From contig CAIIXF020000003.1 in assembly GCA_903813345.2 (NCBI GenBank), forward strand, positions 28,287,248-28,351,247: 64,000 bases of DNA, in the 5' to 3' direction. Below, piece after piece: positions 44,401-50,400 of this stretch (position 1 is its first letter; the number at the start of each line of letters is the position of its first letter). Source of the DNA: Owenia fusiformis. Its lineage: Eukaryota; Annelida; Polychaeta; Sabellida; Oweniidae. Below the pieces are notes generated by a model, which saw nothing but the letters and a program-made list of their open reading frames with translations, was not told the origin of the DNA and did not search any database. The position numbers and the translations under genes are program-made.

Positions 44401-47400
44401 TTATAGCCATATTTGTTTCACCAGCTGAGTTAACAGGCTTTGTGATGTCTAGGTTTATTAGCAATAATCATCCCTTCAAAAACAGTTTTGGGATTAGAAA
44501 AAGTTAATCCATCCATCTATTCGTTAATATGATTGACCACACTTCCATATGTCAGAAGGGTGTGGGGCATAACCTGATTTCTTTAAAATTTACATTTGTA
44601 GTCCTCATTAACGTTGGCTGGTTTCAAAATGGCAGCCACTTTTTGTTAGATTTTCTGAAATTGCATTGTATGATGGTTTTCTGTAAAAATGCTCAACATA
44701 TTGATTCAGTTCAAAATCATTTATTTCAAAAATATGGATGTAATTTTGTGCTTGAGAAAAGTTATTAAAAGTTTTTACTATTTTTTTAATGTAAATACTT
44801 GGAAGATACAACTCATAATCTATCATCAAGAGCATTATGTTAACAGCTGTATTAATCCCTTTATTAATCTAGGGTTGTCATACTCTATATGATAAATATG
44901 CTGTGCTTAACATCATTTCAATTTCAGTCTTCTAACAATGATCAGAATAATGATCAGTCATATATAGCACCATATATCATCTTGAACCTTTATTCCTTAA
45001 GTATACTGATTATGTAAGTTATTTACATGAAATTGTCCCCTGGACCTTATTTATTTATAAACAACTTCCCCTGGATCTTGGTTATTTACATGCAACTGTC
45101 CCCTGGACCATAGTTGCTTACATCCAACTGACCCATGGATTAGCTTAGTTACTATCTATTATTCAGAATCAAAGTTTCCATCTAGAAATAGATCTGGGAT
45201 TGAGTCTAACTTGGCCATTAGATGATCAATAGAGTCTATAATTGGTGATACATCTGGAAGAGTGAACATATCTGATGTCAGATCTGGGAGTGAGTCCATA
45301 ATGGCTGTAAGATCTGGATCTGAACCTGAATCTACTTCCTTAATGAATCTGAATACTGTCTTAGTGTTATCCTTATGGAGCCACTCTACTTCAAGGACTG
45401 AACCGATCTTGAGTTCTCTGTTGAAATGAAATGTATCAATTTGTTTCAATGTGTCCACCAATGAATGAAGTATATCAGGTTCTTTGATATCATCTGCTTT
45501 GAGGTCTTCCTGCAGAAGCATGTCCCACCAGGATGTCTCAGTGGTATGTTTCACATGTTGCATAATCCATAATAATACCGTACATTCATCAATACTGATT
45601 TTAAGTATAATCTTCCTCTTGGGATAATTTATATCTGGTATTTCATACTGGCTTGTATTAATAGTATAAATATCAGTATCAAGATCTTCACTTTTACTGC
45701 CATGTGTGTCTTCACTTTGGCTCTCACTCTCACGTGTGTCTTTACATTGACTTGATGTGTCTACACTTTGACTCTCATGTGTTTCTACACATTGACTCTC
45801 ATGGGTGTCTACACATTGACTCTCATGTGTGTCTACACATTGACTCTCATGTGTGTCTTCACATTGACTTTCATGTGTGTCTTCACATTGAGTCTCATGT
45901 GTGTCTTCACATTGACTCTCATGTGTTTCTACACATTGACTCTCATGTGTGTCTACACATTGACTCTCATGTGTGTCTTCACATTGACTCTCATGTGTGT
46001 CTTCACATTGAGTCTCATGTGTGTCTTCACATTGACTCTCATGTGTTTCTACACATTGACTCTCATGTGTGTCTACACATTGACTCTCGTGTGTATCTAC
46101 ACATGGACTCTCATGTGTGTCTACACATTGACATTGACTCTCATGTGTGTCTACACATTGACTCTCATGTGTTTCTACACATTGACTCTCATGTGTGTCT
46201 ACACATTGACTCTCGTGTGTATCTACACATGGACTCTCATGTGTGTCTACACATTGACTCTCATGTGTGTCTACACATTGACTCTCATGTGTATCTACAC
46301 ATTGACTCTCATGTGTGTCTACACATTGACTCTCATGTGTATCTACACATGGACTCTCATGTGTGTCTACACATTGACTCTCATGTGTGTCTACACATTG
46401 ACTCTCTTGTGTGTCTACATATTGACTCTCATGTGTGTCTCCACATTGACTCTCATGTGTGTCTACACATTGACTCTTGTGTGTATCTACACATGGACTC
46501 TCATGTGTGTCTACACATTGACTCTCATGTGTATCTACACACTGACTCTCTTGTGTGTCTACATATTGACTATCTTGTGTGTCTACATATTGACTCTCCT
46601 GTGTGTCTATACTTTGACTCTCATGTGTGTCTACACATTGACTCTCATGTGTGTCTACACATTGACTCTCATGTGTGGCTACACATTGACTCTCATGTGT
46701 GTCTACACATTGACTCTCATGTGTGTCTTCACATTGAGTCTCATGTGTGTCTTCACATTGACTCTCATGTGTGTCTACACATTGACTCTCATGTGTGGCT
46801 ACACATTGACTCTCATGTGTGTCTTCACATTGACTCTCATGTGTTTCTACACATTGACTCTCATGTGTGTCTACACATTGACTCTCATATGTGTCTACGC
46901 TTTGACTCTCACAGGTGTTGACAATTTGACTTTCATGTGTAAAGAATCGGCTGACTATTTCCTCAAGGCATTGTCCCACTTGATCATTCTTACAACCCTT
47001 CTGGTGGTGGAGCAGCAACATTTTATAGGAATACGAGGAAGAATCTGTTTTTATCTTAAGAATTTTGTTCATCATGTGATTTACATACTTAAATGCAAGG
47101 AATAAATGAAGGTGATTGCTTGTTAATGTATGAGTATCTGGGTCTGCTTGAGGACCTGGATCAATAAGTGATTCAGTCCAATGGGATTCTCCTCGACTCC
47201 CATCACACCTTGAACATTCCATTTTCCGGCGTTCACTCACCATAACACGCCTTCCTTGTGTAATCTTCATATTCTCCACTGCAAACGAGAGATCAACGTC
47301 AGTTGTGCAGATCGGGGCACCAATTCTAAACCAAATACTTGTAGCATGATAACCCTCATGGATGCTCAAACTTCCTAGTGGGTATGGAGATTCAGGGTCA

Positions 47401-50400
47401 ACTTTGTGATCTTTCTCACCAATGAAATTCAATTCATTGCTCTCACTTAGATAGGATTTCATTCGAAGATTCAGCACTGAAAGAAAATTTGTGTTCAGTT
47501 TGCTAGAACCAGGATTGTTCACACCTGGCGGATTAGCTGTAAAATGCCAGTCAGGTAGTCTACTATGGAGATCTCCATATTTGACATTTATGAAACCATA
47601 TCCCTGATCCACAAGCTCACAATTAACTCCAACCATCTCTACTTTGACTGCTTCATCACCAGACCATGTAAGGATAGGAATAAAGTCATATTCATTTGGA
47701 GATAAAATTTTAGTCTCTTCATATGAGCTTCCACGTCTGGCACAACTGTTTGTTTCAAATATCAGATTCGGTTCATCTTCATATTTTGGTGTGTGTTTGC
47801 CAAAATCGTAACATACTTTCTTCACAATGTTTTCTATATATTCTTTATTTTCTTCCAGTTCATCTGGTATGTATCTGTTTTTCACATTTACTTTTGATGA
47901 TACATATTTTATAAATTCTGACAAGCGTTCTTGATTCTTTGATATAGAAGTAGGTATTTGGTAGTCCTTGAGAGTATCATAATTCTCAGGTTTAGGAAAT
48001 GGTCCAATGAATTTAATATTGTTTTTCTTCAGCTTCAATGTTAAGTGTAGTTTTGCCATTTTGTAATATTTTTCAACAATATGTGTACCGTACTTTTAAT
48101 GTTTACAGCCTTATTAAGCATTTAGAGCATACATGCTAACTTGTAAACAGGTCAAAGTCTATATTGATCTTGTGTTGTTGTTTCACATACTTCTGTTAAT
48201 ATGTTCACTGATCACCGATTTATCACTAATAAACAGTTTAGATTCTCACTCCCATTTTGGTTAATTGAAGTCTTTCTTGACCTAATGTTTGTTTGTGTTA
48301 TTTATTTGCATCATCTACTATCTTCTTCATACTGTTTGTATTGCTATTGCGATGTACTGTATGTATATTGCTATTGCGCAGTTTACTGTAGTTGTACAGT
48401 GCATGATGTTTGGCATTATAGTTTTATCAATGTCAGAATGACTTTTGAATACTTGGCAGGCTATCATGATTTGTAAAGCTATCTGATAAAGGCAAACATT
48501 TTTCTGTTTTTATGTATTTCTCCTCAACATTTACAATGGACTTGATGTCCTTACAATTACATATTAGCTATACTCTCGGGGGGGGGGGGGCAGAAAAAAT
48601 GTGGGCCCCTTAAAAAATTGATTTAAGGCCTATTTTCATTCTAATTTAGCCCAGTAATCCCTTAAAGGCATACTAATTGGGGCCTTAAAAATTTTGGGAT
48701 CAATTTTTTTTGGGCCCACCCATTTAAGGGAAAGGTCATTTCATCATTTGAATTGAAAAATGATCTACATCAAAACAAGAAAAATATAACAAATCATTGG
48801 GAATTATATAAAGAATGCCTACATCTGTCCATCCATCTCTCTGAAACAATAACTCAAATAATATTAGCCCAATATCATTTACAATTCATAATGCATATCC
48901 CTTATGAAAGTTCAAGTTATGCTGGTCCAGGAGCTGATTTTGAAAATGGCCACAGGTTTCAAAATAGCTGCCATTTTAGTGTTGATTTAACAGTACTTTA
49001 GTTACAACTGTAATTTTAATATGTGTTGAGTCCAAAAGATTATACAATTGAACTTGATTTTATTGCTTCAGATATGGGAAGAGAGTTGAAGGTGATAGCT
49101 GGATTTAGATACTACGCTCCTAAGGAAGGTTCTTCACTGTTTGAAGCTATAGAAGAGATAGCAGAAGATGATCCAATTCCAACACCTTAGTAAGTAAACC
49201 TTAACTGTTGCTTGAAGCCCTTCTGTTTGCTACTCATACCTCATCTCAACAAGATGTTAGTGGTGTAGTTTGGGGTGAAGTAGGCTGGGAAGTAGGGGGT
49301 GAAGTAGGAGGTAAATTAGGGGGTGGAATGGGAACTGAAGTAGAAGGTCAAGTAAGTAGAAGGATGTGGTTCAGAGACTTGGTACAAGATTAGAGTCAAC
49401 CCTCACTGAATTCCACTCTCATGACATGTATGCAATTGTTCATGCAATTTCTCCCTAAAATTGACTTGCCCAATTTAGAATAACTTCAGATGAGATATAT
49501 GAGGGTTATGTTGTGGGAGGTTTGGGATATGGTGTTTATCCTGATTGAAATATAGATATTTTGTCTAGAGTCTAAGGTAAGATATCATATCAAATATCAA
49601 AATATCAAATATCAAAACCTTAGTTTCACATAACTATGAGTAACTACATATGGCTAGTGACATTTATTCAGCCTACTGATAGTCTACTGAGTGGGAACTA
49701 CACTTCATCTTAGTTGACACATCATTTTTTCTCTTGCACTTTTATTTTTAAAAAATCCAAAAACGTACCTTCATTAAATTAAATTTTTTGGACCATATTG
49801 TTAACCATGTATGTATATTTCAGTGGCTATGACATAGTGCCCTACCCCCTGACAGATGCCATAGGAGAGGAGCCTCTGGGTATGTCTAAGTCTAATACTG
49901 TACTTACTGCACCAGTTATACAAGAGAATGCTGAAGAAGAGGAACATGTTGAACTGAGAACGGAAAATTCCATTCTTAAAATGGAAAATTCCACTCTAAG
50001 ATCACAGAATCAGACTGAGGGTACCGCTTTGCTTCTTAAATTTTGTGCAGGATTTTATTTTACAATTTAATTTGATTAACCCTAAATTGTATCTAATGAT
50101 AAATTTAATGGAAATATTTGTGTGATTCTACAATTTAACTTTTGCAAATGCTATGTGTTTGTGATAAGCAAATAGATAAAATCAACCAATAATATATTGT
50201 ATCAAATGTGAAACAGCCCCTCAGGTTATTTAAGGTATCATTTGTATACAACTCAGTTTAATTTGGTTTCTAATGTGAAATTGCCCCTTAATTAGTTATT
50301 TAACATGAATTATTTGTTTTGTTTAATTTGATTATAATAAGTTTTAAAACGCTTTTTCAGTGCAAAATAACATGCGGAAACCTAACAGTCTGGTCTGTAC

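What the first reader, a model, noticed from the sequence alone, without database searches (positions are those of the whole stretch)
45159..48059. cGAS/Mab-21-like protein carrying a 400-residue octapeptide array
The open frame keeps the GS and E-x-D block (residues 110-125) and a third Asp (D256) at the positions used by cGAS-type enzymes. It inserts about 50 copies of a [12 protein letters not shown] octapeptide between the helical bundle and a unique C-terminal region. cGAS-like receptors are a fast-evolving immune family in invertebrates. A Cys-, Asp-, His- and Glu-rich repeat could bind metal or drive clustering, giving a sensor with a multivalent arm. The fold assignment rests on motif recall. 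The function of the repeat is my inference.
Basis: partly seen in the sequence, partly recalled or inferred. Interest (0 to 1): 0.85.

Follow-up and report, generated by a model that had tools for sequence, protein, structure and literature searches.

The report
cGAS-like protein with expanded linker repeat
One member of a large cGAS-like gene family in this animal carries about 50 copies of an eight-amino-acid repeat, which most likely grew in place by in-frame tandem duplication of the protein's own short linker and probably acts only as a tolerated flexible spacer.

Summary
In detail: 45159-48059 (minus strand) is a 966-codon open frame with GS, E-x-D and a third Asp at residues 110-125 and 256, and 50 copies of a 24-bp/8-aa unit. 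The fold call is right at superfamily level: the window sequence alone matches nothing, but a profile with 19 same-genome paralogs matches 41 PDB sequences, 39 named cGAS, cGLR or Mab-21, and the catalytic residues are invariant in 20 of 20. Matches fall into about 91 loci. The C-terminal region is not unique: 97 residues of it are a family block. The array is not an acquired module: in 7 of 8 related genes the best match to the 24-bp unit in the whole gene is the 22-24-residue linker at that place; in the eighth the frame is broken there. Substitutions in the array look unconstrained, and Cys and His are not the best-kept positions. Best reading: a probably active cGAS-like enzyme with a coding minisatellite in a surface linker. 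Fold, activity and expression are untested.

The parts
45159..48059 (-). Open frame of 966 codons plus stop, cGAS/Mab-21-like protein with internal repeat array
   Evidence: the ORF listing; family search of the own genome
46944..48059 (-). Residues 1-372: NTase core and first part of the helical lobe; used as query, 105 matches in about 91 loci of the genome
47727..47732 (-). GS motif, residues 110-111
   Evidence: invariant in 20 of 20 members of A2
47685..47693 (-). E-Y-D, residues 123-125, first two catalytic acids
   Evidence: E123 and D125 invariant in 20 of 20
47292..47294 (-). Third catalytic Asp, D256 in V-D-L
   Evidence: invariant in 20 of 20; aligns with the hDh Asp of 3 conventional members L060-L062
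47181..47216 (-). C-x2-C-x7-H-W, residues 282-294; C285, H293 and W294 invariant in the 20 members, possible zinc site
   Evidence: metal binding not tested
45693..46940 (-). Array of 50 octapeptide units (consensus [35 protein letters not shown]), residues 374-789
   Evidence: a 22-base piece of the unit is found at up to 2 mismatches only at this locus (45 hits)
45348..45638 (-). Residues 808-904: family C-terminal block (PDINYPKR ... TKTVFR)
45162..45347 (-). Residues 905-966: acidic tail with repeated DSxPDL-like phrases (seen by eye), no counterpart in 7 close paralogs, whose frames end 0-22 residues after the block
45017..45139 (+). 32-bp tandem repeat (3.9 copies) just downstream of the stop codon

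Best explanation
The gene is one member of a large, expanded family of single-exon-looking cGAS/Mab-21-like nucleotidyltransferases. The 400-residue array is a coding minisatellite. It arose on this gene's own branch by in-frame tandem duplication of a 24-bp piece of the short linker (FTHEKQCID in paralogs) that lies between the helix ending in [11 protein letters not shown] and the family C-terminal block, near the end of the cGAS helical lobe. It then spread by further 24-bp and about 120-bp block duplications. Because unit length is a multiple of three and the site is probably a surface linker, the array is tolerated. The protein most likely works like other cGAS-like enzymes (ligand-gated synthesis of a nucleotide second messenger read by STING-type receptors), with the array as a flexible, strongly acidic spacer of little specific function. 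Shown: homology, invariant catalytic residues, absence of the array from close paralogs, origin from the linker, no sign of amino-acid constraint in the array, constraint on both flanks. Inferred: fold in detail, catalysis, ligand, immune role, surface position and disorder of the array.
For: Family and catalytic residues. Location: 7 paralogs have 22-24 residues between the two blocks where this gene has 434. Origin: of 8 related genes, 7 have their best match to the 24-mer, over all rotations and the whole CDS, in the linker itself (16-20 of 24 bases). Branch: the window gene is a lone branch beside the clade L039/L042-L046, whose 6 members lack the array. Unit pattern found only here in 498 Mb (45 hits). 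Higher-order blocks: at a lag of 5 units 13 of 45 unit pairs are identical, 1-5 pairs at each other lag from 1 to 15. Constraint: 7 of 30 distinct substitution types in the array are silent, 17-23% expected for random changes; flanks dN/dS 0.21-0.26 (N) and 0.14-0.33 (C) against 7 paralogs. Setting: six other arrays of 8 or more copies with periods of 20-93 bp lie in the same 64 kb. STING ligand-binding-domain matches in the genome.
Against: No expression data, so use of the frame is inferred from conservation. Synonymous distances are near saturation (dS 0.7-1.4), and pairwise dN/dS averages over time before and after the array arose, so a recent loss of function would not show; among the younger paralogs the ratio is higher (0.39-0.95 in the N part). 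In L039 the linker match is 16 of 24, the same as the best unrelated match in L041, so that one row is at chance level by score and counts only by its place. The only off-length step in the array that the anchor scan saw is +6 (1 of 38 intervals), whereas 1 of 12 off-length steps in four other arrays of the window is a multiple of three, and no stop is seen where about 1.25 of 30 types would be expected; both hint that the frame is selected, which fits a translated spacer but also a useful array. The active-site spacing (130 residues) lies outside the published 50-90 for cGLRs. The C-lobe match to cGAS is weak (7.8 bits).
Confidence: 0.75

Rival explanations
1. The array is a functional multivalent arm: one Cys and one His per unit at regular four-residue spacing bind metal or cross-link, and cluster or tune the enzyme.
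For: 45 Cys and 44 His in 416 residues at fixed spacing, net charge about -104; frame kept over 50 units.
Against: Kept in units: T 49, E 48, S 47, Q 46, H 43, C 42, D 41, V 37 of 50, so the presumed ligands are not favoured. No deficit of amino-acid changes. Absent from the close paralogs. Regular spacing follows automatically from tandem duplication.
Confidence: 0.12
2. The gene is a dying or silent copy; the array grew because nothing selects against it.
For: Several family copies are broken: L041 has a stop at the linker, L048 and L063 carry insertions, the match L003 (same place as L040) contains a stop.
Against: 966 codons open, catalytic residues intact, flanking blocks with dN/dS 0.14-0.33 on both sides of the array.
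Confidence: 0.13
3. The protein is a catalytically silent Mab-21-type scaffold rather than a second-messenger enzyme.
For: No activity data; R instead of Q/T before GS and a long spacing to the third Asp; for Mab21L1-related proteins it is not understood whether they make nucleotide signals (PMC9980059, section read).
Against: GS, E-x-D and third Asp are invariant in 20 of 20 diverged members, which is not expected for a pure scaffold.
Confidence: 0.25
4. The array length is an assembly artefact.
For: Tandem arrays are error-prone in assembly; no reads were available.
Against: The array is 1.2 kb, within the length of one long read (how this genome was sequenced is not known to me); units carry many distinct variants and block structure, and the frame is intact.
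Confidence: 0.05

Closest known systems
cGAS (cyclic GMP-AMP synthase) and animal cGLRs (PMC9980059)
   Same: NTase core with GS, E-x-D and third Asp; SSY helix and G-x-C-x4-V segment align with cGAS, weakly; large copy number in one genome, as reported there for some bivalves and cnidarians; STING-type domains in the same genome
   Different: Only the family profile, not the single sequence, finds the match; 130 residues instead of 50-90 between the acids; a family C-terminal block of about 100 residues; C-x2-C-x7-H, unlike the cGAS zinc ribbon (the latter recalled); the octapeptide array
Mab-21 domain proteins (PF03281; MAB21L1)
   Same: 10 of 20 family members match PF03281 at E 0.01 or better
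   Different: The window sequence itself does not reach PF03281 at E 1. The same genome's MAB21L1-like gene (L059) has NN in place of GS
Coding minisatellites such as the PRDM9 zinc-finger array (PMC3890296 and others, search listing only)
   Same: In-frame tandem units in a coding region, expected to vary in copy number
   Different: PRDM9 units are functional domains under selection (listing and recall); these units show no sign of amino-acid constraint and grew from a linker

Membership tests
Mab-21/cGAS nucleotidyltransferase superfamily | Recognisable sequence homology to PF03281 or to solved cGAS/Mab-21 structures | tested here: met
   Family profile against the PDB: 41 distinct sequences at E 1 or better, 39 named cGAS, cGLR or Mab-21 domain protein and 2 named uncharacterized (4jlx, 4kb6); best E 4.2e-5. 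Pfam Mab-21 in 10 of 20 members. Profile-profile with 4 conventional members: E 1.6e-6 over 97 columns. The window sequence alone: no Pfam or PDB match for residues 1-372 at E 1.
Mab-21/cGAS nucleotidyltransferase superfamily | Three-dimensional fold | tested here: inconclusive
   AlphaFold2 on residues 1-380 as a single sequence: mean pLDDT 30, pTM 0.19
cGLR (criteria of PMC9980059) | G[S/G], [E/D]h[E/D] and third acid present | tested here: met
   G110 S111, E123 Y124 D125, D256; invariant in 20 of 20
cGLR (criteria of PMC9980059) | Strict motif h[QT]GS and 50-90 residues between E-x-D and the third acid | tested here: not met
   R109 before GS; 130 residues. Three conventional members of the same genome, L060-L062, show 104-115 by the same count, so the spacing limit is not a sharp test.
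cGLR (criteria of PMC9980059) | Homology over the C-terminal helix bundle | tested here: inconclusive
   SSY and G-x-C-x4-V segment aligns to cGAS at only 7.8 bits; hhalign covers the NTase part only
cGLR (criteria of PMC9980059) | Ligand-dependent synthesis of a nucleotide second messenger | not testable with these tools
   Needs purified protein
Coding minisatellite | Tandem units with a length divisible by three, inside a conserved coding frame, derived by duplication | tested here: met
   24-bp unit, 50 copies, conserved blocks on both sides in one frame, source segment identified
Coding minisatellite | Copy-number variation between individuals | not testable with these tools
   One assembly only

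The most novel reading that the evidence does not exclude
A cGAS-like receptor has turned its own linker into a 400-residue, strongly acidic Cys/His arm that binds metal or self-associates and sets the threshold or location of second-messenger synthesis, with a length that varies between individuals and so gives heritable variation in an innate immune enzyme.
Probability: 0.1. Interest if true: 0.75.

Novelty: new variant of a known kind. Interest (0 to 1): 0.4.

Why it matters
It shows the birth of a long protein repeat directly: the source codons still sit in the sister genes, so the step from an eight-residue linker piece to a 400-residue array can be read off. It also points to a family of up to about 90 loci, diverged enough that half of the members tried escape Pfam, in the cGAS-like repertoire of an animal with STING-type domains. 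If the array proves to matter for function, it would be a natural experiment on how a large flexible insert affects a cGAS-like enzyme.

Tried and rejected
Single-sequence searches (Pfam; PDB) found nothing for the fold and would have suggested no homology; the family profile corrected this.

A search for the array's protein elsewhere in the genome (711 candidates, 112 scored) gave 119 matches. Those outside this locus are 14-44% identical, but several have strong E-values (best 2.4e-28, C1:22151775, open over 299 aa). I read them as low-complexity or other repeat sequence and did not follow them up; a diverged relative of the array elsewhere is therefore not excluded. 'Only here' rests on the DNA pattern at up to 2 mismatches.

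Selection on the array through its freedom from frame breaks was considered and judged weak: other arrays in the window also have few off-length steps, and only about 1.25 stops would be expected among 30 types. The 30 types include changes in two irregular units (at residues 638 and 777), which adds a few types.

Organism: 498 Mb and hits on large contigs C1-C12 (lengths seen for nine of them, 31.9-62.2 Mb) resemble the annelid Owenia fusiformis (505.8 Mb, 12 chromosome-scale scaffolds; passages seen in PMC9977687). This is a guess from size and number, not tested, and nothing rests on it.

Literature: no paper of the library holds both 'cGAS-like' and 'octapeptide repeat'. The titles listed (3 of 3; 15 of 38; 12 of 15) name no such array. 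Only PMC9980059 (passages; one section) and PMC9977687 (passages) were opened. Open-licence papers only.
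Full report
Observation. The open frame 45159-48059 on the minus strand has 966 codons from ATG. TRF reports the array at 45726-46940 with a 24-bp period and 50.5 copies. A parse of the translation gives 50 units between residues 374 and 789 with consensus THESQCVD. Two of the three other-strand frames of the unit have no stop either and give open frames of 405 and 445 aa, so the length of the frame means little by itself. 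Conserved sequence on both sides in the same frame is what makes it a gene.

Family. A search of it with residues 1-372 gave 105 matches at E 0.001 or better (136 candidates, 110 scored, so a lower bound). They fall into 91 loci when match starts within 3 kb are joined, and into 52 loci for the 58 strongest rows, E 6.6e-30 or better; the weak tail may include other Mab-21-type genes. The two best paralogs are 58% identical over residues 11-372. I took 20 loci and aligned 19 of them with the window gene (L040 was left out there). Their coding part runs in one open frame, so the family looks intronless, though at least three of these frames are cut short: L042 at its start, L041 and L048 at or just after the linker.

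Superfamily. Residues 1-372 alone match no Pfam family and no PDB chain at E 1 (the only Pfam row for the full frame, DUF3432 at E 0.043, lies in the array). With 19 paralogs the picture is clear: 10 of 20 members match PF03281 Mab-21, and the profile matches 41 distinct PDB sequences at E 1 or better, 39 of them named cGAS, cGAS-like receptor or Mab-21 domain protein and 2 uncharacterized, best E 4.2e-5. A 13-member profile drawn from the same set without the window gene gave 36 PDB sequences at E 0.01 or better, 35 named cGAS and 1 uncharacterized, best E 2.7e-4. It aligned with a profile of 4 conventional Mab-21/cGAS-type proteins of the same genome at E 1.6e-6 over 97 columns, in the NTase part only. 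As a check, the conventional profile matches MAB21L1 at 1.7e-107 and cGAS at about 2e-24.

Active site. G110, S111, E123, D125 and D256 are invariant in 20 of 20 members. In a joint alignment D256 falls on the hDh Asp of three conventional members, L060-L062, while the MAB21L1-like L059 has NN for GS. The published cGLR definition asks for h[QT]GS and 50-90 residues to the third acid (PMC9980059, section read). Here R precedes GS and the count is 130; L060-L062 show 104-115 by the same count, so I do not take this as exclusion, but the strict motif is not met. I therefore file the protein in the Mab-21/cGAS superfamily and not as a proven cGLR.

C-terminal region. A search with residues 776-966 found 61 matches at E 1, many of them directly behind N-terminal matches. 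In 16 pairs that I read off by eye, not a full count, the two matches lie 18-81 bp apart; at two further loci (C12 near 31.6 Mb, C4 near 22.31 Mb) the gap exceeds 1 kb and holds inserted sequence (see below). A block of 97 residues (808-904) is shared by the 7 close paralogs with a readable linker. So the region is not unique. Only the final 62 residues have no counterpart in these.

Origin of the array. Between the two blocks these paralogs have 22-24 residues; the window gene has 434. A 22-base piece of the unit occurs 45 times in the genome at up to 2 mismatches, always in this locus. For each of 8 related genes I looked for the best match to the 24-mer over every rotation and every position of the coding sequence. 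In 7 of 8 it is the linker FTHEKQCID or its variant (16-20 of 24 bases). In the eighth, L041, the frame is broken at the linker and the best match, 16 of 24, is elsewhere; so the 16 of L039 is by score at chance level and counts by its place only. The array therefore most likely arose in place from linker codons. In a tree of 20 members the window gene is a lone branch beside the clade L039/L042-L046, none of whose 6 members has the array. Identical units are commonest at a lag of 5 units (13 of 45 pairs; 1-5 pairs at other lags), which points to later duplication of 120-bp blocks.

Selection. Against the consensus the 50 units show 30 distinct substitution types: 7 silent, 23 amino-acid changing, none to a stop; random change would give 17-23% silent and 4% stop. 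So there is no sign of constraint on the amino acids. Units kept per position: T 49, H 43, E 48, S 47, Q 46, C 42, V 37, D 41 of 50; Cys and His are not favoured. The flanks are constrained: dN/dS 0.21-0.26 (N part) and 0.14-0.33 (C part) against 7 paralogs, with dS of 0.7-1.4, close to saturation. Among the younger paralogs L040 and L042-L046 the ratio is higher, 0.39-0.95 in the N part and 0.15-0.89 in the C part, with one outlier of 4.26 at dS 0.02, so recent copies evolve fast or under weak constraint. As a control on the frame, off-length steps between unit anchors were 1 of 38 in the array (+6) and 12 of 62 in four other arrays of the window, of which one is a multiple of three; this hints at a kept frame but is weak. 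The N part has net charge -3 and the array -104, which speaks against the array as a nucleic-acid-binding arm.

Insert-prone site. Another member, L048, has about 1.5 kb of non-coding repeat sequence between its two blocks and its frame ends there. A further copy (L063) is interrupted by an inserted element with inverted ends, seen by eye, a little later in the C-terminal block. L052, L053 and L057 carry small tandem duplications in the C-terminal block. The window gene is thus the extreme case of a wider tendency.

Working model. Shown: family, catalytic residues, place, source and evolution of the array. Inferred: the protein makes a nucleotide second messenger on sensing a ligand, as cGAS-like enzymes do; the genome has 22 matches to the STING ligand-binding domain at E 1 or better, 15 marked over the cut-off, several of them two halves of one gene, so a receptor is available. 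The array most likely forms a flexible acidic spacer on the surface near the end of the helical lobe. Without expression, structure or activity data this remains a model.

Verdict. The sequence observation is right and the superfamily guess is right. The array is best explained as a coding minisatellite that grew from the linker, not as a purpose-built metal-binding arm. It is a new variant of a known kind, with moderate interest.

Noticed in passing
window 34365-35107: Eight tandem copies of a 93-bp unit that encodes a MORN repeat (Pfam MORN E 1.4e-26, four stretches in the frame 34458-34988) preceded in the consensus by a pyrimidine-rich stretch ending in CAG, like a 3' splice site: possibly a tandemly duplicated exon.
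   Followed up: partly
window 32662-33025, 53743-54570, 55669-55861, 57213-57508, 58432-59191: The window is rich in minisatellites (periods of about 20-42 bp, up to 38 copies), so tandem expansion is common here.
   Followed up: partly
window 39931-41871, minus strand: 646-codon stop-to-stop frame with a rhodopsin-type seven-transmembrane domain (7tm_1, E 8.3e-8) behind a long N-terminal part.
   Followed up: no
window 3723-4136, minus strand: Fragment with helix-turn-helix domains, one of Mos1-transposase type (HTH_32 E 2.2e-8; HTH_48 E 0.0015, below its cut-off).
   Followed up: no
window 14954-17365, minus strand: 803-codon stop-to-stop frame, Ser/Arg/Asp-rich, no Pfam match at E 0.01.
   Followed up: no
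L051:1633-3603 and L049:1407-3248: Two family members have hydrophobic C-terminal extensions that look like several membrane-spanning segments (seen by eye, not predicted by a tool).
   Followed up: no
L048:2680-4120: About 1.5 kb of non-coding repeat inserted in the linker of another member; its TTCAAAATGGCCGCC phrase also occurs in the window repeat 36876-36913.
   Followed up: partly
window 47181-47216 (residues 282-294) and the 20 aligned family members: C285, H293 and W294 are invariant (C-x2-C-x7-H-W here): a possible zinc site in another sequence form than the cGAS ribbon (the ribbon is recalled).
   Followed up: no
G000, contigs C7 10.96-12.83 Mb, C5 30.33 Mb and others: 22 matches to the STING ligand-binding domain, 15 marked over the cut-off, partly clustered: the STING family seems expanded too.
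   Followed up: no
G000:C1:22151775-22152452 and other rows: Other repeat-rich frames score against the array protein at 14-44% identity, some with strong E-values; nature unknown.
   Followed up: no
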